Shown piece after piece: positions 28,696 through 59,879 of a DNA stretch of 64,000 nucleotides. Origin of the DNA: Eggerthellaceae bacterium (GTDB taxonomy: Bacteria; Actinomycetota; Coriobacteriia; Coriobacteriales; Eggerthellaceae); the NCBI GenBank assembly GCA_022644775.1, contig JALCHN010000006.1, forward strand, positions 1 through 64,000. The letters run 5' to 3'. The position numbers were made by a program, and so were the translations under genes. The notes under the pieces were generated by a model. It made no database searches. It saw only the letters and a program-made list of their open reading frames with translations, and was not told the DNA's origin. Within the stretch, counting starts at the first letter, position 1, and the number at the start of each line of letters is the position of its first letter.

Positions 28696-29148
28696 CACTG
28701 CCTAATGAGTCGATGGGAAAGTCAGGGATGCGGGGACTCGGAATGAAGCGGTCGAGGGTTCGCAGGGGAGAGGAGACGCGCGCGCTTAGCGAGGCCCTGC
28801 GCGCAAGCGCCGTGAACTCGCTGCCCACCGCCACCACCTAGCGCAGCCTCGGGGAGCGGTCGAGTCGACCACGTGCGACTCCTTTGACTCACCGCGGGGC
28901 GCCGTGCTGCCGATTGGCGGTGTCTTCGCTCCTGCGCCGCGGCAGAGGCCCGCGCCCGCGCCCGCGCCCCGCGGCTTTACCCTTGCCCGCATCCCCTCGT
29001 CATCGCCCTGTCCCTTTCCCCCCTGGCCTTCCTCGCCGTCGCCCTATCCCCTCTGCCCGCCTGCTCAACATGCAGGGCCCTTGCACGCCGAACGGGAAAC
29101 GGCGCTTCCAAAGCTCGTTTCGCAGGGGAAATGCACGCGAAACCCGTC

Positions 29149-29465
29149 ACGGCCCTGCATTATGAGCGGAACCGTGCAAGGGCCCTGCAAGATGAGCGGG
29201 ATTTGCCCGTTCGGCGCGACATCCCCCTGCGTTCTGAGCAGAGGGCCCCGCATGCGGGGCCCGAGCGCTCAACCCCGTGTACCGGCCCTGCGAAACGAGC
29301 GGGGAATCGCACCGGCCCTGCGAAACGAGCACGGGGATTGCGTCGGCCCTGCAGGATGAGCACGGGAATCGCATCGGCCCTGCGAAACGAGCAGGGGGAT
29401 TGCACCGACCCTGTGGAATGGGCGGAACCGCGCACCGGCCCTGCAGAATGAGCAGGGCCGGGCGA
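29149..29465. repeat. 30-31 bp tandem repeat array
   Basis: Units starting GGCCCTGC occur at 29151, 29181, 29284, 29314, 29345, 29376, 29407 (GACCCTG) and 29437, spaced by 30 or 31 bases from 29284 on. The typical unit is GGCCCTGCGAAACGAGC then RSGGGRATYGC and a short link. Some units replace GAAACGAG by AGGATGAG or AGAATGAG. Reverse-oriented units occur at about 29070-29080 and 29113-29124. Units touch each other with no unique spacers. Confidence 0.85.
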
Positions 29466-29556
29466 GACCAAGGCCGTGCAGCTGGCCGAAGACGGAAGCG
29501 TGGAATGGCCCAGCGAAACGTGCCCTCACGTCCCGCGCTTCGTTGGAGCCGTCAGA

Positions 29557-30786
29557 TCACCCGATGAGGGCGCAGGCGAGGTCGCAGACGTTGGTCCCGG
29601 TGGGGCCGGTGACGATGAGACCGTCCACGGCGGCGAGGGCGGGGTGCGAATCATGGGCGGCCAGGGCCGCGGCCGCATCGATGCCCGCCTGCCGTAGGGC
29701 AAGGGCCGTGTGGCCGTCGACGTAGCCGCCCGCCGCGTCGGTGGGTCCGTCGGTGCCGTCGCTGCCGAAGGAGAAGACGGCCGCCCGCTTGCCGTCGAGG
29801 ACGCCGGCGGCGGCCAAGGCGAGCTCTTGGTTGCGGCCGCCCGTGCCGGCATCTGCAAGGTGGACAACGGTTTCGCCACCGGCGAAAAGGGCGAGCTTGC
29901 GGTTGTGCTCGGCCTGGGTGGCGGCGATGCTGCCCAGCATGCGGCCGGCTTCGCGCGCCTCGCAGTCGAGCCGGTCGGTGAGGACGAGGGGCTTGTAGCC
30001 CAGCTGGCGCGCCGCCTTCACGCCTGCCTGGCAGAGCTGGGCGACGCTGCCCGCCACCTGCAGGGTGGCGTTGTCGATGTCCTTGGGCGTTTCTATCTGC
30101 AGCTGCTCGAGGGCTTCGGGCGACAGGCTCAGCCCGCGCCGGCGCACCACTGCGAGCGCGTCCTCGCAGGTGCTCGGGTCGGGCGAGATGGGCCCGCTCG
30201 CAATCATGTCAGGGCGGTTGCCCATGACGTCTGAAAGGGCGATGCCCACCACCTGCGCCGGGGCGCAGTGCTCGGCGAAGCGACCGCCTTTCACCATGCT
30301 CAGGCGCTTGCGGATCGTGTTGGCCTCCACGATGTCGGCCCCGCTCGCGAGCAGCTGGGCGGTGATGTCGCGCAGCTCGCCGATGGGGAGGTAAGGGCGT
30401 TCGAAGAGGGCGCTCGCCCCGCCGGACACCAAAAAGACCACGGTGTCGTCTTCCGAAAGCCCATCGGTCAGCTTCAGGGCCCGGGCGGTGGCGGCCACGC
30501 CGTTGGCGTCGGGCAGGGGATGGCCGGCCTCGTAGACGTCGAAGCCGGCAAGCGGCCCGCGCGCATGCCCGTACTTGGTGATCACGATGCCCGCGTCGAT
30601 GTGGTCGAGCACCCGAAGTGCAGCCGCGGCCATCTGCCAGGCGGCCTTTCCCACGGCGACGACGATCGTGCGTCCCGCGCCGGGGTAGAAGTATTCGAGA
30701 GCGCCCTCAACGGCGGCGTCAGGCAGGACGTCCTGGATGCACGAGGTGACGATCGCATCGGCGTCGGCGCGCAGCTCTTCGAACAT
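29557..30786 (-). CDS. Glycerate 2-kinase (MOFRL/GckA family)
   Basis: 409 residues. The N-terminal DUF4147 part (AVGKAAWQMAAAAL, GGASALFE, NTIRKRLSMVKGGRFA) and the C-terminal MOFRL domain (LFAGGETVVHL, GGRNQELALAAA, GTDGPTDAAGGYVDG) define the class II glycerate kinase / hydroxypyruvate family, which phosphorylates D-glycerate at C2. AAAGAAGGG precedes the ATG. It lies downstream of cydDC on the same strand with a 35-base gap and may share transcripts with it. Confidence 0.93.
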   Translation of the reverse strand: MFEELRADADAIVTSCIQDVLPDAAVEGALEYFYPGAGRTIVVAVGKAAWQMAAAALRVLDHIDAGIVITKYGHARGPLAGFDVYEAGHPLPDANGVAATARALKLTDGLSEDDTVVFLVSGGASALFERPYLPIGELRDITAQLLASGADIVEANTIRKRLSMVKGGRFAEHCAPAQVVGIALSDVMGNRPDMIASGPISPDPSTCEDALAVVRRRGLSLSPEALEQLQIETPKDIDNATLQVAGSVAQLCQAGVKAARQLGYKPLVLTDRLDCEAREAGRMLGSIAATQAEHNRKLALFAGGETVVHLADAGTGGRNQELALAAAGVLDGKRAAVFSFGSDGTDGPTDAAGGYVDGHTALALRQAGIDAAAALAAHDSHPALAAVDGLIVTGPTGTNVCDLACALIG

Positions 30787-30821
30787 GGGGCCCTTCTTTC
30801 CGCGAGGCTGAACTCATGCCC

Positions 30822-32572
30822 CTATTGTAGCGACCCCATGCCGCGGTCGAAGGCGAGCAGGGCGCGGAACCGCTCGTTTGTGCGGGCGAGTGCGGAAGGC
30901 GTCCCGTCCATCTGGATGCGGCCGTCTTCCAGGAAAATCACGCGGTCGAAGTGGTCGATGCCCTGCAAGTGGTGGGTGACCATGACGATCGTGCGGTCGG
31001 AAAGGACGGAGAAGAGGGTGTCGAGCAAATCCGCTTCGGTGAGAGGGTCGAGGGCAATCGTCGGTTCGTCGAGTAGGACCACGGGCGCCTGCGCGAGCAG
31101 AACGCGGGCGAGGGCGATGCGGTGGCGCTGGCCACCCGAAAAGCGTCGGCCGGCTTCGTCGACCATGGTGTCGAGTCCCTGCGGCAGGTCGCCTGCAAGG
31201 TCGCCCAATCCCACGGCGGATAGGGCGTCCAGGAGCTCGCTGTCGGTCGCGTGCGGCGCGCCCAGGCGCAGGTTGTCGCGCAAGCTGCGGTTGAACAGGT
31301 AGGGCTGCTGCTGCATGAGGCTGAAGATGGCCTCGGGAGCGGCCAGGTGCGCGGCGGGGACGCCGCCTGTGGTCGCGGTTCCGCGGGTGGGTGCCACATC
31401 GCCGTGGATGAGCGAGAGTAGGGTCGATTTTCCCGAACCGCTGCGCCCTAGGATGGCCACGTGCTCGCCGGGGGCGATCGAAAGCGTGACGCCGTCGATG
31501 ACCGGCCGCGCGCTTCCCGGGTAGGAGAAGACGAGGTCGCGCAAGTTGATCTGGGGCCCGTGCGCGACGGCAGTGCGGTCGCACGCTGCCGCTTCGGCGC
31601 CCTCTTCGTCGAGGTCGTTCAAACGCTCGATCGACTGGGCGAACCTAGTCGCCTGCTTGGCGGCTTGGGGCAGGGGGGCGAAGGCTTCGGTGAGAGGGAA
31701 GAAACCGAGCACGAAGGCCGCCACGAAGTTGAGGGCCGCTCCGCCCTGGGCGCCGAAATACCCGGCAGCCCAGGCGATCGTGGCCACCGCGCCCGTGCCG
31801 AAGACGACCTGCAGGACGAGCGCGAAACGGCGGTCGCGCGCGTCGAGGTCGCGCGCAAGGGCGGCTTGGGCGCGCTGAGCCTCTTCGAAGCGGTCGATGC
31901 AGGTCTCGGCGCGGCCTGCCAGTATCCAATCGGCTGAGCCCAGGATATCGTCGGTGAGGACGGCGTAGAGCTCGTCGGTGAGAGCTTTGCGCTCGGCTTC
32001 GCGGGCCCGATTCACCAGAAGCGACACGTAAGGGAGAAGGACGCCGGTGACGCCGAAGGTGACGAGCATGATGCCCACCAGCCAGAGGGAGAGCAGGCCG
32101 CAGGCGGCGGCTACGATGAGGGCCAGGATCCAGGCGACGGCGGTGGGGAAGATCACGCGCAGAAAGAGGTTCTGCAGATGCCCGATGTCATCGGCGATGT
32201 AGCCGAGCACGTCGCCGGTCGACAGAGGAGCGGCGGTGGAGGCGGCCCGCGCGGCGAGCACCCGGTAGAGCCGGCGGCGCAGGTCGCTGGTCATGCGGAA
32301 GACCCAGTCGTGGTTGGCCAGGCGCTCGAGGTAGTGGACGATCGGTTTGCCCAGGCCGCAGACTTCCACGGCGACGAGCGGCAGCACCGACACGAAGATG
32401 CTGCCGGGCAGGGTGGCCGTCCAGCTGATCAGATAGCCGGCGGCAAACATCATGAGCGACGAGCACGCGAAGGCGATGACGCCCATCCCGAGGGCGCGCA
32501 CGAGCTGCGGTCGGTAGAGGGCCAGGTAGGGCGCGATCCAACGGCGTCCGTCGATGCGGGGACGGGTGGTTC

Positions 32573-32576
<4 letters not shown>
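30822..32576 (-). CDS. cydC: CydC-type ABC exporter subunit
   Basis: A 584-residue half-transporter: six helices in the first 300 residues, then an ATPase with Walker A LGRSGSGKSTLL, signature FSGGQRHRIALARVLL and Walker B VVLLDEPTIALD. GKPIVHYLERLANHDWVFRM is typical of CydC. With CydD it exports cysteine/glutathione-type thiols and supports haem insertion in cytochrome bd. Starts in an ATGA overlap with cydD. No cydAB is in the window. Confidence 0.9.
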
Positions 32577-34393
<1,817 letters not shown>

Positions 34394-34438
34394 GGGCGGG
34401 TCTCCTTCCCTTATTGCTACCCATTCTATAGCAATTCC

Positions 34439-34467
34439 GTGACGGCGGGGGCGGGCGATGTCGTCAC
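34439..34467. repeat. GTGACAAC-type hairpin, diverged copy
   Basis: GTGACGGC...GTCGTCAC with loop GGGGGCGGGCGAT. The loop end GCGAT matches the GCGTGAT end of the family. Confidence 0.55.
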
Positions 34468-34550
34468 ATATGCATGCAGAATCAGCGCCCGAGCCTGGGG
34501 CGATCGGCAGGCCGCCTGACCCTGCGCTCGCCTGCGTGCAGGACCTGCGG

Positions 34551-34649
34551 GCGCAAGCTCTACCCATGCGGGCTCCACCGGCCCTGCATCCGCCTGAGCG
34601 ATGGAACCGCGCGCACAAGCTCTACCATGCGAGCCTCGCCGGGCCTGCG
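34551..34649. repeat. Direct repeat of about 38 bases, two copies
   Basis: 34551-34588 (GCGCAAGCTCTACCCATGCG and onward to GGCCCTGCA) and 34613-34649 (GCACAAGCTCTACCATGCGA onward to GGGCCTGCG) match closely at a spacing of about 62 bases. Both contain a (G)GGCCCTGC-like core also seen in the tandem array at 29.3 kb. Confidence 0.65.
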
Positions 34650-34690
34650 CCACCTGCGTGCAGGGACCGCGAAACGCTCCCAGCGCCCCG

Positions 34691-34842
34691 ATGGCTTGTC
34701 GATTGAGTTTTCGAGGAATACGAGCTCATTTTTTCGATTGAATGAACTGTTAGTCAACATATACATTTATTATGTTCAGCAATATACGGAATTGAACGTC
34801 GCAGACCATGCAATCGTCTCGAAAACTTGATTGCCATGCCAC
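34691..34842. repeat. TIR-A element, copy 1 (152 bp)
   Basis: Ends at 34691-34716 and 34817-34842 are imperfect inverted repeats sharing ATGGC, then AGTTTTCGAG (reading inward). The interior of 100 bases is strikingly AT-rich (for example ATATACATTTATTATG) against a background of high GC. No transposase and no obvious target duplication. Copies 2 and 3 lie at 45841 and 56478. Confidence 0.75.
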
Positions 34843-34923
34843 CGAGCCCCGATTTTCGTTCCGTATGTGTCTTGCGGTGGCATGGAACGCTGTCGCGGGG
34901 CGGCGGCCCCCGGGCGCGTGCGT

Positions 34924-34951
34924 GTGACGACGGCGCCCGCCCCGTCGTCAC
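34924..34951. repeat. GTGACAAC-type hairpin, GTGACGAC variant
   Basis: GTGACGAC (34924-34931) and GTCGTCAC (34944-34951) are exact complements enclosing GGCGCCCGCCCC. Both arms changed A/T to G/C together, keeping the pairing. Confidence 0.75.
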
Positions 34952-35085
34952 ACCAGGGAGAAACCCCTATGCCCGGATGGGGACATCCCCGTCGAGTTGC
35001 GCATTTCAGGTAACTACAATGGCCGCAGATCGGTAATCCGACACCTGCGCTCCCTGGGAGCGCGTCGAAGGAGAAGAAGGTAGAT

Positions 35086-36411
35086 ATGGCACAAGAAACC
35101 GCAGCGGTTGCAGTGGGGCTGGGCCCCCATCCCTCGCGCAAGGAGATCATCGCGCATTGGGATCCGGAAAACGAAGCGTTTTGGAAGGCCTATGGAAAGA
35201 AAACGGCAACGCGCAACCTGGTCGTTTCGATCATCGCGCTGCTCATCACGTTTTGCATCAACACCCTTGCCGCGCAGGTGAGCGCCCAGCTCAACAACGC
35301 GGGCTTTTCCTTTGATGCGGGCCAGCTCTTCCTGCTCACCGCCCTGCCGGGCTTGGTGGGCGCTACCGGCCGCCTCGTCTACACCTACCTGCCTGCGCGC
35401 ATGGGCGGGCGCAACTTCACGCTCGTAACGGTGGGCATCCTGCTCATCCCCCTTATCGGCATCGGCATGGCGGTGCAGGACACGACGACCCCCTTCGGCG
35501 TCTTCGCCGCTTGGTTCGCCTTCTTGGGCCTTGCGCTTTCGGTCTTTTCGGGGTCGATGGCCAACATCGGCTTCTTCTACCCGGTTGCGGAAAAGGGCAC
35601 GGCCAACGGCCTGAACGCCGGTATCGGCAACCTGGGCGTGGCGGTCACCTATTTCGTGACCCCTATGGTGCTCGGCACCTTCCTGGGAATCGGTTCTGGC
35701 GTCACCACGCCCGCCGGCACCCAGCTCTATCTGCAGAACGCCTGCTTCGTATGGGTCATCCCCACGATCGTAGCCTTGGTGCTTGTCGCCCTGTTCATGG
35801 ACAACCTGCCCATGCCCAAGCAGAGCTTCAAAGACATGGCGGCCATCTTCAAGAACAAGCACACCTGGTTCTGCACCTGGATCTACACCTGCGGCTTCGG
35901 TTCCTTCATCGGCTACTCGATGGCCCTTGCCCTCATCATCAAGGTTGTCTTCCCCAGCGTCGACGCCTCCTACATGATGTTTCTGGGGCCGCTGATCGGT
36001 GCCGGCATCCGTCCGGTGGGCGGTTGGCTGTCTGACAAGATCGACTCGGGCGCCAAAGTCACCTTCGTGTCGCTCATCATCATGTTCATCGCCACGGTCA
36101 CCGTCATCCTGGGCATCCAGGCGCAGAACTTCGTCCTCTTCTTCGGGTCCTTCCTCATCCTCTTCGCCACGACCGGCTTCATCAACGGCGCTTCTTTCCG
36201 CATGGTCCCCAACATCTTCCACGACCGTCAGCAGGCCGCCCAGGTGACGGGCTTCACCGCCGCGATCGCCGCCTACGGCGCCTTCATCGTGCCGATCCTC
36301 TTCCGCAGCGATTACTTCACCGCACTCGTGATCCTCGCTGCCTTCACCCTGTCGACGATCGTGCTGACCTGGGTGGTCTACACCCGCAAGGGCGCCGAAG
36401 TGAAGTGCTAG
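35086..36411 (+). CDS. narK: NarK-type nitrate/nitrite MFS transporter
   Basis: 441 residues, twelve-helix major facilitator protein. The signature stretches TALPGLVGATGRLVYTY and GSMANIGFFYPVAEKGTANGLNAG include the Arg and Gly-rich helix 5 expected in NarK. LGPLIGAGIRPVGGWLSDKI is the second nitrate signature. GAAGGAGAAGAAGG precedes the ATG. It imports nitrate or exchanges it for nitrite and lies just upstream of narGHJI. Confidence 0.95.
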   Translation: MAQETAAVAVGLGPHPSRKEIIAHWDPENEAFWKAYGKKTATRNLVVSIIALLITFCINTLAAQVSAQLNNAGFSFDAGQLFLLTALPGLVGATGRLVYTYLPARMGGRNFTLVTVGILLIPLIGIGMAVQDTTTPFGVFAAWFAFLGLALSVFSGSMANIGFFYPVAEKGTANGLNAGIGNLGVAVTYFVTPMVLGTFLGIGSGVTTPAGTQLYLQNACFVWVIPTIVALVLVALFMDNLPMPKQSFKDMAAIFKNKHTWFCTWIYTCGFGSFIGYSMALALIIKVVFPSVDASYMMFLGPLIGAGIRPVGGWLSDKIDSGAKVTFVSLIIMFIATVTVILGIQAQNFVLFFGSFLILFATTGFINGASFRMVPNIFHDRQQAAQVTGFTAAIAAYGAFIVPILFRSDYFTALVILAAFTLSTIVLTWVVYTRKGAEVKC

Positions 36412-36420
36412 GCCTTTGCT

Positions 36421-36477
36421 GGGGGAGCGGCGCGTGCCGCGCCCCCGTCCGCGCCGCGCGGGACGACGCGCGGCGCG
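36421..36477 (+). terminator. Two tandem GC hairpins between narK and narG
   Basis: GGGGGAGCGGC pairs with GCCGCGCCCCC (36421-36446, one mismatch). Next to it CGCGCCGCGCG (36450-36460) and CGCGCGGCGCG (36467-36477) form a perfect 11-bp stem. There is no T-run, so they may protect or process the nar mRNA, or pause polymerase. Confidence 0.6.
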
Positions 36478-36593
36478 TCTATCCCATTCCCTAAGAGCTT
36501 GCCCGCAGCAAGCAGGCGCCGTGCGCCGTTTCTGCGGAAGGTAGAGAAGCGCGGGGCCGGCTGCGGCCCCGCAAAAGACGAGGAAGGATGAAG

Positions 36594-39500
36594 ATGTCTC
36601 ATCTTTTCAGGAAGTACTCCCACATCAGGAAGGCCGACGATGCGCCGGCTCCGGTGCGCCAGCCTGAAGGCGGCCATCAGGAGCTGCGCGAGGGCGGCCG
36701 CGACTGGGAGCACATGTACCGCGACCGCTGGGCCCACGACAAGATCGTTCGCTCGACCCACGGCGTGAACTGCACCGGCTCCTGCAGCTGGAACATCTAT
36801 GTGAAGAACGGGATCGTCACCTGGGAGAACCAGGCGACCGACTACCCCGAGACGCCCGATTGCATGCCTGACCACGAACCCCGTGGCTGCCCGAGAGGCG
36901 CTTCCTTCTCCTGGTATCTCTACAGCCCCCTGCGCATCAAGTACCCCTACCTGCGCGCCGAGCTCGCCGAGATGTGGCGCGACGCCCGCGCCCAGGGCAT
37001 GAACCCCTACGACGCCTGGGCGTCGATCGCGAGCGACCCGGAAAAGAAGGCCCGCTACAAGAAGGCCCGTGGCCTGGGCGGCTTCGTGCGCTCCAACTGG
37101 AAGGAAGCTTCCGAAATCGTCGCCGCGAGCGAGCTCTACACCGCCTATACCTACGGTCCCGACCGCAACATCGGCTTTTCGGTCATTCCGGCCATGTCGA
37201 TGCTGTCCTACGCGGCCGGCGCCCGCTTCAACCAGCTCATGGGCGGCGCCCAGCTGTCCTTCTACGACTGGTACGCCGACCTGCCGCCGGCGAGCCCGCA
37301 GGTCTGGGGCGACCAGACCGATGTGCCCGAATCGTCCGACTGGTACAACGCCGGCTACCTGATGCTCTGGGGCTCCAACGTGCCGCAGACCCGCACCCCC
37401 GACGCTCACTTCCTGGCCGAAGTGCGCTATAAGGGCACGAAAGTCACGGCGGTCAGCCCCGACTACGCCGAGTTCTGCACCTTCGCCGATACCTGGCTGC
37501 AGCCCAACGTGGGCACCGACAGCGCCCTGGCCATGGCCATGGGCCACGTCATCTTGAACGAGTACTACTGGAAGAAGCCCGAGCCCTTCTTCCTGAACTA
37601 CGCCAAGCAGTTCACCGACATGCCCTTCGCGGTCATCATGGACGATCACGGCGACCACTGGGAGCCGGGCCGCTTCTTGAACGCCGCCGACATGGGCGTG
37701 GAAGGCGCCAACCCCGAATTCAACTTCTTCGTCTCCGACGCGAACGCCGGCAAGCTCGTGGTGCCCAACGGCACGATGGGCGACCGCTGGGGCGACCAGG
37801 CGCACTGGAACCTCAAGATGGAGGACAGCGCCACGGGTGCCGCGATCGACCCCGAACTGTCCTTCGTCGACCGTCACGACGACGTCGTGGCCACGGCCTT
37901 CCCCTACTTCGGCACCGACGGCAAGACGACGATCGTGCGCAACGTGCCCGTGCGCACCGTCACCGCGGCCGACGGCACCATGCTGCGCATCACCACGGTC
38001 CACGACCTGCTGCTCTCCCAGTACGGCATCGACCGCGGCCTGGGCGGGGAGTGCGCTTCCTCCTACGACGACGCCAGCGTTGCCTTCACGCCGGCCTGGC
38101 AGCAGGCCATCACCAACGTCGACCCCGCGCTCGTCGTGCGCACGGCCCGCGAGTTCGCCGACAACTCCATCGCCACCAAGGGCCGCTCGATGATCATCAT
38201 GGGCGCCGGCATCAACCATTGGTACCACGCCGACGACATCTACCGCACGGTCTTGAACATCCTGCTCTTCTGCGCGACCGAAGGCCGCAACGGCGGCGGC
38301 TGGGCCCATTACGTGGGCCAGGAGAAGCTGCGCCCGGCCGAAGGCTGGAAGACCGTCATGACGGCGACCGACTGGCAGATGCCGCCGCGCCTGCAGAACG
38401 GCACCTCCTTCTTCTACTTCGCGACCGATCAGTGGCGCAGCGACGAGATCGACACCGAAGACCTCACGAGCCCCCTGCGCACCCCGCGCTACCACCACTC
38501 GGGCGACTACAACATCATGGCGGCCCGTCTGGGCTGGCTGCCCGCGTACCCCACCTTCAATAAGCCGGGCGCGCAGATCGTCGCCGAGGCCAAGGCGGCC
38601 GGCGCCGCCGACGACGAGGGCATCAAGGCGGCGCTCGTCGACCAGCTGAAGAACAAGCAGGTCGACTTCGCCTACGCCGACCCCGACGCTCCCGAAAACT
38701 TCCCGCGCAACCTTATCGTGTGGCGCGCCAACCTTCTGGGCTCCTCCGCCAAGGGCTCCGAGTACTTCAACAAGTACCTGCTGGGCGCCAAGAACGGCGT
38801 GGTCGAAGAGGAGCGCATGGCCGCCGAACCCGAAGAGATCAAGGTGCGCCCCGAAGTCACCGAAGGCAAGCTCGACCTGCTCGTGAGCCTCGACTTCCGC
38901 ATGACCACGACGCCGCTGTACTCCGACGTAGTCCTGCCCACGGCCACCTGGTACGAGAAGACCGACATCTCCTCGACCGACATGCATCCCTTCATCCATC
39001 CCTTCAGCCCCGCCGTTGAACCGGGTTGGGAGTCCCGCACCGACTGGGACATCTTCCGCACCCTGGCCGCGGCCGTGAGCTCGGTGGCCAAGGAAGCAAA
39101 CCTCCAGCCGCTCGACGACATCGTCGCCGTGCCCCTGCAGCACGATTCGGCCAGCGAGCTCGCCCAGCCCTGCGGTCGCGTGCGCGACTGGTCGAAGGGC
39201 GAATGCGAGCCGGTGCCGGGCAAGACCATGCCCAACCTGGTGCACGTGGTGCGCGACTACACCAAGACCTACGACAAGTTCGTGGGCCTGGGCCCCAACG
39301 TCCCCAAGAAGAACTTCGGCTGGGACGCCACCGAACAGTACGAATGGATCGGCGACCGCAACGGGCGCATCGAGAACAAGGACCTTCTCTCCTACGGCAT
39401 GCCCTCGCTTGCCGAAGCCGAGCACGCGGTCGACGCGGTGCTCGCCCTGTCGACGTCGTCCAACGGCAAGCTGGCGGTGAAGGCCTTCGAGGGCCTCGAA

Positions 39501-44828: not shown

Positions 44829-44937
44829 CGGGTCGCCGGGGCGGGCGGGCGCGGTGGGCGCCTGGTCGCGCTTACCCCGCGTCGAAGCGCGCTTCGGGGC
44901 GCGCCGATGGGTCGGGGCGGGCGTCACCTCATGCCCG

Positions 44938-45013
44938 TGCGCCAAGGGGCCGGCTCCCTCTGTTGCATCCCCGCTGCGCGGGGCGCCCCAGAGGGAGCCG
45001 GCCCCTTGGCGCA
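44938..45013. repeat. 76-base palindrome with perfect 24-bp arms
   Basis: 44938-44961 (TGCGCCAAGGGGCCGG and onward to CTCCCTCT) is exactly complementary to 44990-45013. The 28-base centre contains its own CCCCGC/GCGGGG stem. It lies 109 bases after the response-regulator stop, so it could terminate the nar transcript, but no U-run follows. Confidence 0.85.
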
Positions 45014-45208
45014 GCGCACGACCGACAAATCTTACCAGGCGCGCCCTCTCACGCGCGCTTCTTTGGCGGGGCGCTCCAACGGCGCCCACCGCGCCCGCCC
45101 GCCCCGTGCACAGGTCCGCTTTGGGGCAGGGGGTTGCTGCGGCCGCCCGCGAGGGGGCGGCGGTTTCCGGTTGCGGCGTTTCAGGTGGTTGCGGCTTTTC
45201 CTGCGCGC

Positions 45209-45241
45209 GGGACGGGGCGAGGCGCTGCGCTGTCGCCCCTG
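45209..45241. repeat. GGGGCGA/TCGCCCC hairpin, copy 1
   Basis: GGGACGGGGCGAGGCGC then TGCGCTGTCGCCCCTG: outer stem GGGGCGA/TCGCCCC with inner GCGC pairing. Repeated at 45343, 45432 and 45749. Confidence 0.75.
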
Positions 45242-45254
45242 CTGCGGGTTGCGT

Positions 45255-45320
45255 GTGACAACAGGGGCGCGTGATGTCGTCACACCTGCGTGTGACAACA
45301 GGGGCGCGTGATGTTGTCAC
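45255..45320. repeat. Two GTGACAAC hairpins in direct order
   Basis: First unit 45255-45283 (right arm GTCGTCAC, one change), second unit 45292-45320 with perfect arms; both loops are AGGGGCGCGTGAT. The spacing is 37 bases. Confidence 0.85.
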
Positions 45321-45342
45321 ACGCTGGCGGTTGGGGCTCGCC

Positions 45343-45373
45343 GGGAGGGGCGAGGCGCTTCGCTGTCGCCCCT
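45343..45373. repeat. GGGGCGA/TCGCCCC hairpin, copy 2
   Basis: GGGAGGGGCGAGGCGCTT then CGCTGTCGCCCCT. Identical core to copy 1 except one base in the loop. Confidence 0.75.
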
Positions 45374-45431
45374 GTTGCGGGGTGGGACTCGCCGGGTTGG
45401 GGGTCCCGGGTCGCGGCCGCGTGAGACCTGC

Positions 45432-45463
45432 GGGACGCGGCGGGGCGCTTCGCTGTCGCCCCT
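45432..45463. repeat. GGGGCGA/TCGCCCC hairpin, copy 3
   Basis: GGGACGCGGCGGGGCGCTT then CGCTGTCGCCCCT. The right half is identical to copy 2, the left half has diverged. Confidence 0.7.
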
Positions 45464-45500
45464 GCCGCAGCGGCGGCCTCACACGTTCCGGGACGGGAAA

Positions 45501-45840: not shown

Positions 45841-45982
45841 ATGGTTTCTCGTTTAAGTTTTCGATTCAGGAGTGGCTGTTAAGGGTTAGATAATGCACAA
45901 ACTATTAAAGTATGTTCACTGATTCCGGCTTACTCTTTGAAAACCAGGGCGGTTTTCCTCGAAAACTCGATTGGCGTGCCAT
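45841..45982. repeat. TIR-A element, copy 2 (142 bp)
   Basis: Left end 45841-45866 (ATGGTTTCTCG then TTTAAGTTTTCGA) and right end 45957-45982, which read outward-in as ATGGCACGCC then AGTTTTCGAGG. The left end is the most diverged of the six ends. The interior is AT-rich. Confidence 0.7.
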
Positions 45983-56364: not shown

Positions 56365-56477
56365 TGCAGGATGTGCGAGGTTGCACGCGCACGCGTGCGT
56401 GCAAGGTGCGTGAGTCGAGGGAAACGGGTGCGCAGGCTGCAGGCCAAGAAGGGCTCTGAAACGATTTCGACCGCTCC

Positions 56478-56672
56478 ATGGCGTGCCGTTTAAGTTTTCG
56501 AGGCGATAGAGCGAATGGATGGGAAATAATCGAGAGCGATTCCCAACTATAAGGATCTATCGCGCGAAAAAGCGTTATAGCTGAGACGAAGAATGGACAG
56601 CTGAATCACAATTGCACGGTCGCGGTGCTGCAGGGACCGCTCGGCTGCTCGAAAACTTGATTGGGAAGCCAT
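56478..56672. repeat. TIR-A element, copy 3 (195 bp)
   Basis: Left end 56478-56503 (ATGGCGTGCCG, then AAGTTTTCGAGG) and right end 56647-56672 (reads inward as ATGGCTTCCC, then AAGTTTTCGAGC). It is longer than the other copies because of a GC-rich stretch near the right end (CACGGTCGCGG and TGCAGGGACCGC); the word TGCAGGGACCGC also stands just outside copy 1, at 34659. Confidence 0.75.
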
Positions 56673-56717
56673 ATCGCATGCGAAATCGTTTCACGCACGC
56701 CGGTGGGACGCTTTCGG

Positions 56718-59707: not shown

Positions 59708-59738
59708 GGCAAGCCCCCTCTGGTGTGCACGGCTTGCC
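59708..59738 (-). promoter_or_regulatory. Possible riboswitch expression-platform hairpin
   Basis: On the - strand GGCAAGCC (59738-59731) and GGCTTGCC (59715-59708) form a perfect 8-bp stem. The first arm overlaps the conserved CUGGGCA end of the aptamer, so ligand binding and this hairpin would exclude each other. No U-run follows, so control might act on translation or by another route. Confidence 0.55.
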
Positions 59739-59803
59739 CAGACGGTCGGCGGATTGGGCGCGCTGCTCCCCTGTGGTGACCCACATGAACCGTCAGTCAC
59801 AGC
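59733..59803 (-). ncRNA. ZTP (pfl) riboswitch aptamer
   Basis: Read on the - strand the sequence has, in order, GUGACUG followed by ACGG; the hairpin GUGG-GUCA-CCAC; AGGGGAGC; a variable hairpin; and CCGUCUGGGCA. These are the conserved blocks of the pfl/ZTP riboswitch, with the ACGG/CCGU stem in place of the common GCG/CGC. It senses ZMP/ZTP, the AICAR nucleotides that build up when 10-formyl-folate is short, and it stands before purO and AICAR transformylase, the expected genes. Confidence 0.88.
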
Positions 59804-59879
59804 ACGCATATCGCAAGCATACACGCTTTCGGGGCGCGCGGCGCCCGCGCGGGGCGCTTCGCTACGAAATCGCCGAAGG

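What the first reader, a model, noticed from the sequence alone, without database searches (positions are those of the whole stretch)
34691..34842. TIR-A: an AT-rich element with 26-bp inverted ends, three dispersed copies
Three intergenic elements (34691-34842, 45841-45982, 56478-56672) share inverted ends reading ATGGC...AAGTTTTCGAG inward, with AT-rich interiors in high-GC DNA. Interiors differ more than the ends, as in MITEs or mobile structured RNAs. No transposase, target duplication or open frame is visible. I know no named family with these ends.
Basis: seen in the sequence. Interest (0 to 1): 0.72.

Follow-up and report, generated by a model that had tools for sequence, protein, structure and literature searches.

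The report
Helically phased dispersed DNA-binding elements
Two related gut bacteria (genus Hugonella) carry about a dozen scattered copies of a roughly 190-base DNA element whose conserved ends and centre always sit a whole number of DNA turns apart, which suggests a platform on which an unknown protein folds the DNA rather than an RNA or an ordinary insertion.

Summary
The genome has 11 paired elements (3 in the window) and its sister species Hugonella massiliensis has 13; no pairs were found in the other family or class genomes searched. Each element has two inverted 24-bp arms (ATGGCNTGCCRATCAAGTTTTCGA), usually an outer ACG-centred motif (often GAAACG) 14 bp outside, and an AT-rich interior. 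Arm-to-arm spacing takes only the values 103-104, 114-115, 125, 136, 147 and 157 bp, and arm-to-core spacing only 28-29, 39-40 and 50: steps of one helical turn. In three of six loci shared by both species the spacing changed by exactly one turn. The two arms of an element do not co-vary, so this is not an RNA stem. Arms at shared loci are conserved while interiors diverge. Flanking genes form no regulon. Best reading: composite double-stranded protein-binding sites on which an unidentified protein loops or wraps about 200 bp, kept by selection. An old miniature transposon family is the main rival. No transposase, target duplication or binding protein was found. Function unproven; a pull-down would settle it.

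The parts
34671..34676 (+). outer motif GAAACG, element A left
   Evidence: fixed 14 bp outside the arm; ACG nearly invariant over 46 arms
34691..34714 (+). left arm of element A
   Evidence: ATGGCTTGTCGATTGAGTTTTCGA; arm alignment A1
34754..34778 (.). central dyad (core) of element A, TCAACAT-N11-ATGTTCA, 39 and 40 bp from the arms
   Evidence: also found with a matrix trained only on the other species
34819..34842 (-). right arm of element A
   Evidence: GTGGCATGGCAATCAAGTTTTCGA on the minus strand
34857..34862 (-). outer motif GGAACG, element A right
45841..45864 (+). left arm of element B
45894..45918 (.). central dyad of element B, 29 and 40 bp from the arms
45959..45982 (-). right arm of element B
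56458..56463 (+). outer motif GAAACG, element C left
56478..56501 (+). left arm of element C
56649..56672 (-). right arm of element C; arm spacing 157 bp; no significant core
56687..56692 (-). outer motif GAAACG, element C right

Best explanation
Each element is a composite double-stranded protein-binding site. A DNA-binding protein, or a complex of two, occupies both arms and the central dyad on one face of the helix and folds the roughly 190 bp into a closed loop or wrap. The sites are dispersed, intergenic and not tied to a regulon, so the most likely role is architectural (a chromosome-organising or insulating node) rather than promoter control. SHOWN: arms, core, helical quantisation, independent variation of the two arms, conservation of the arms at shared loci, restriction to Hugonella among the genomes searched. 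INFERRED: that a protein binds, that it bridges the three sites, and the architectural role. The protein is not identified.
For: Arm-arm spacings fall only on 103-104, 114-115, 125, 136, 147, 157; Rayleigh R = 0.96 near 10.8 bp, and treating departures from the common length as independent, 0 of 200,000 random sets were as phased. Arm-core distances are only 28-29, 39-40, 50. A core matrix trained in one species finds a phased core in 9/11 and 11/12 elements of the other, without using position. Shared loci changed spacing by one turn: 115 to 125, 136 to 147, 114 to 103. At the clearest orthologue (L069/L075) the arms are 43/48 identical, the interior 65/105 (P = 5e-4) and flanks 67-68%, with one clean 10-bp indel. 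Over six shared loci all 36 arm mismatches lie in columns 1 and 5-15, none in columns 2-4 or 16-24. No left/right arm covariation. All arms found at up to 3 mismatches have a partner. Flanking genes are unrelated.
Against: No binding protein, footprint or transcript is known. About half of the elements are present in only one species, odd for an essential architectural site. Phasing alone could also serve synapsis of short transposon ends. Orthology of four of the six shared loci rests on location, since their interiors are no more alike than those of paralogues. Three elements (157, 136, 147 bp) lack a detectable core.
Confidence: 0.5

Rival explanations
1. An old family of miniature transposons (MITEs): the arms are transposase-binding ends, distinct left and right ends with a shared inner repeat, and phasing was kept because two ends about 100 bp apart must synapse in cis.
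For: Dispersed intergenic copies; the ends have distinguishable left and right outer sequences; 103-bp copies of H. massiliensis share distant interior homology, 46-47% against 26% shuffled, with homology fading 20-40 bp outside the arms; about half are lineage-specific. Helical periodicity for very short IS50/Tn5 derivatives is recalled from memory, not tested.
Against: No longer element with these ends in either genome; no precise empty site or target duplication; the best conserved part is the inner, not the outer, end of the repeat; one missing copy in G001 leaves a half-arm relic, so it was lost by deletion; arms constrained at an orthologous site; flanks syntenic at the shared sites examined on both sides.
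Confidence: 0.27
2. Operators of a looping transcription factor that controls the neighbouring genes.
For: Phased multi-site architecture with a central dyad is typical of looping repressors (general knowledge).
Against: Neighbours are functionally unrelated (ABC exporter, MFS transporter, dCMP deaminase, FAD oxidase, TrmB-like methyltransferase, QueA, peptidase C1, DNA polymerase IV, kinase); many elements lie hundreds of bp from the nearest start and several between convergent genes.
Confidence: 0.1
3. Arm-core-arm recombination site (attP-like or res-like) used by a site-specific recombinase.
For: Core dyad flanked by phased arms resembles lambda attP or res organisation (general knowledge).
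Against: The core centres differ between elements, so sites could not readily recombine with one another by identity of the overlap; the window genome has only two tyrosine recombinases, each apparently with a counterpart of similar score in H. massiliensis, and genus specificity was not tested; shared sites show no synteny break. Serine recombinases were not searched.
Confidence: 0.08
4. A structured RNA: the arms form a long stem of a transcript.
For: The arms are complementary and could pair.
Against: No left/right covariation, DNA-helix quantisation of spacing, no Rfam match.
Confidence: 0.04

Closest known systems
Correia elements (NEMIS) and similar bacterial MITEs
   Same: 100-200 bp, inverted ends of about 25 bp, AT-rich, intergenic, size classes; Correia elements can hold a DNA-bending (IHF) site (PMC10969869)
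   Different: Interiors here are mostly not homologous, lengths are quantised by helical turn, no target duplication or precise empty site, about 12 rather than over 100 copies, left and right arms vary independently
P1 parS and lambda attP (multi-site nucleoprotein platforms)
   Same: Inverted or multiple protein sites around a central region with helical-phase dependence (from memory)
   Different: Many dispersed chromosomal copies; no cognate protein found; canonical parS and a single ParB exist separately near dnaA
matS and SlmA chromosome-organising sites
   Same: Dispersed, not tied to regulons (from memory)
   Different: Those are short single palindromes; here a three-part site of about 190 bp, found in one genus only

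Membership tests
MITE | terminal inverted repeats, short, no coding capacity, dispersed | tested here: met
MITE | direct target-site duplication or precise empty site (expected in younger copies) | tested here: not met
   at the missing sites examined the length difference exceeds the element (382 vs 44 bp, 1009 vs 66 bp) and one shows a half-arm relic
MITE | parental transposase element with the same ends | tested here: not met
   every arm found at up to 3 mismatches in both genomes has a partner at element distance; the window assembly is in 56 contigs, so gaps remain
MITE | copies share a homologous interior | tested here: inconclusive
   weak homology among H. massiliensis 103-bp copies (46-47%), 35-36% among 104-bp copies of the window genome
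Structured RNA | compensatory changes between pairing arms | tested here: not met
Multi-site looping or wrapping protein platform | spacing of sub-sites by integral helical turns | tested here: met
Multi-site looping or wrapping protein platform | a protein that binds the sub-sites | not testable with these tools
   no candidate identified; no extra ParB; two tyrosine recombinases in the window genome, not shown to be related to the elements
parS centromere | ParB-binding palindrome near the origin | tested here: not met
   canonical parS cluster around dnaA; the elements are elsewhere and unlike it
Tyrosine recombinase att site | shared overlap sequence between partner sites | tested here: not met
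   core centres differ between elements

The most novel reading that the evidence does not exclude
A dedicated, genus-specific chromosome-folding system: a protein bridges arm-core-arm at about a dozen dispersed sites per genome to make fixed small DNA loops, evolving under a rule that site spacing may change only by whole helical turns.
Probability: 0.22. Interest if true: 0.82.

Novelty: new variant of a known kind. Interest (0 to 1): 0.6.

Why it matters
It is a natural record of helical-phase constraint: sister species have lengthened or shortened the same site by one DNA turn while the rest of the sequence drifted. If a protein bridges these sites, it would reveal an undescribed chromosome-organising or mobile-element system in human-gut Eggerthellaceae, and the sites themselves are ready-made bait for finding it.

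Tried and rejected
Searches for the arms in the family (138 genomes) and class (398 genomes, profile model) gave only isolated weak matches outside Hugonella; those loci were inspected and show no inverted partner of comparable strength. GTDB-wide paired scan: besides H. massiliensis, six single-strand matches in unrelated organisms (about 2 expected by my own estimate), treated as chance, not inspected further. Viral contigs, phages and plasmids: none. parS identity rejected. Extra ParB: none. Tyrosine recombinase as cognate protein: no candidate. Origin or terminus bias: GC skew of sampled stretches was uninformative; an 807-kb stretch of the largest H. massiliensis scaffold (546-1354 kb) lacks elements, only marginally unusual. 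Orientation bias in H. massiliensis noted but not significant. Papers: nothing found on such elements in Hugonella or Coriobacteriia in the titles and abstracts returned.

Full report
OBSERVATION. Arms scoring at least 19/24 occur in the window only as these three inverted pairs, and 60 shuffled windows gave none. Across the genome (1.96 Mb, 56 contigs) there are 11 pairs, and in the only other same-genus genome returned by the search, Hugonella massiliensis AT8, 13 (name). The reversed control pattern gives none. Every arm found at up to 3 mismatches has a partner, so there is no longer element with these ends in the assembled sequence.

ANATOMY. Columns 2-4 and 16-24 of the 24-bp arm (ATGGCNTGCCRATCAAGTTTTCGA) are invariant or nearly so over 46 non-redundant arms. 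An outer ACG motif, most often GAAACG, lies 14 bp further out, and outer sequences come in a left type (ACGCTCAGAGC-like) and a right type (GAAACGAAAACGG-like), so most elements have a direction. The interior is AT-rich (44% GC, middle 36%, against 65% in the window). A 25-bp dyad TGAACAT-N11-ATGTTCA lies in it. Trained on one species only, its matrix picks a position phased to both arms in 9 of 11 and 11 of 12 elements of the other species, although position was not used. The three elements without a core have the longest spacings.

HELICAL PHASE. Arm-to-arm spacings are 103-104, 114-115, 125, 136, 147 and 157; arm-to-core distances are 28-29, 39-40 and 50. Steps are one DNA turn. Treating each departure from the common length as independent, none of 200,000 random sets was as well phased; independence is an assumption. 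Six loci are shared by the two species (same flanking genes; at L072/L083 and L066/L087 only one flank is present in an assembly). At three of them the spacing changed, by 10, 11 and 11 bp; at the others it is the same within 1 bp. At L069/L075 the change is one clean 10-bp indel in an alignable interior.

SELECTION. At L069/L075 the arms are 43/48 identical while the interior is 65/105 (P = 5e-4) and the flanks 67-68%. Over the six loci every arm mismatch lies in columns 1 and 5-15. For four of the loci the interiors are no more alike than those of paralogues, so common descent there rests on location, and on shared orientation where that can be judged. Element A (W34691/L080) lies in a stretch unusually similar between the species (96-97%), so it adds little.

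NOT RNA. If the arms paired in RNA, left and right arms of one element would match better than arms of different elements. They do not (20.26 against 20.35 of 24 by permutation, P = 0.66). There is no Rfam match.

MOBILITY. About half of the elements are absent from the other species, though the window assembly breaks near several sites and may hide some. Where both flanks can be read, the size difference exceeds the element and gives no precise empty site: 382 against 44 bp at element C, 1009 against 66 bp at L071. At one site missing in H. massiliensis a 28/36 match to the outer half-arm remains (next best 18/36), which indicates loss by deletion. Several H. massiliensis copies show distant interior homology, so the family did spread by copying at some time. 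The pair L076/L081 shares 527 bp including flank, which looks like segmental duplication. The MITE rival is therefore kept at about one in four.

SURROUNDINGS. Elements lie in long intergenic spaces between genes of all relative orientations and unrelated function (gene calls are from a simple home-made caller, so some neighbours may be wrong). They do not coincide with parS, which is canonical and clustered around dnaA, and no second ParB was found.

DISTRIBUTION. Nothing comparable in 138 family genomes or 398 class genomes, nor in viral contigs, phages or plasmids. A site of the same architecture but different sequence in another genus would have been missed.

CONCLUSION. The best-supported reading is a composite double-stranded protein platform under selection for helical phase. 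That a protein binds, and that the role is architectural, is inference. The cognate protein is the missing piece.

Noticed in passing
window 44830-45150 (- strand); also L065 7060-7290, L068 7490-7750, L071 5909-6190, L081 6690-6930: A second dispersed GC-rich intergenic repeat, found only in the two Hugonella genomes among 60 searched (14 matching pieces in the window genome, 6 in H. massiliensis); as RNA the L065 copy folds into one long hairpin (-157 kcal/mol, z = -5.7); no Rfam match in the window copy. It often lies to one side of the TIR-A elements in constant orientation.
   Followed up: partly
window 59729-59810 (-): ZMP/ZTP riboswitch, 64 bits.
   Followed up: no
window about 28900-39500: This stretch is 96-97% identical to H. 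massiliensis while most other flanks are lower (mostly 76-94%), suggesting recent exchange between the species.
   Followed up: no
G000 contig ends C1, C22, C18, C36, C48; G001 C9 end: Assembly breaks lie near several TIR-A loci, probably because of the neighbouring repeats; further copies may be hidden in gaps.
   Followed up: partly
window about 44950-45500 and L065/L068 intergenic stretches: REP-like short palindromes (CAGGGGCGACAGCGAAGCGCCTCGCCCCGTCCCGC; GTGTGACAACATCACGCGCCCCTGTTGTCACAC) in the same intergenic regions.
   Followed up: no
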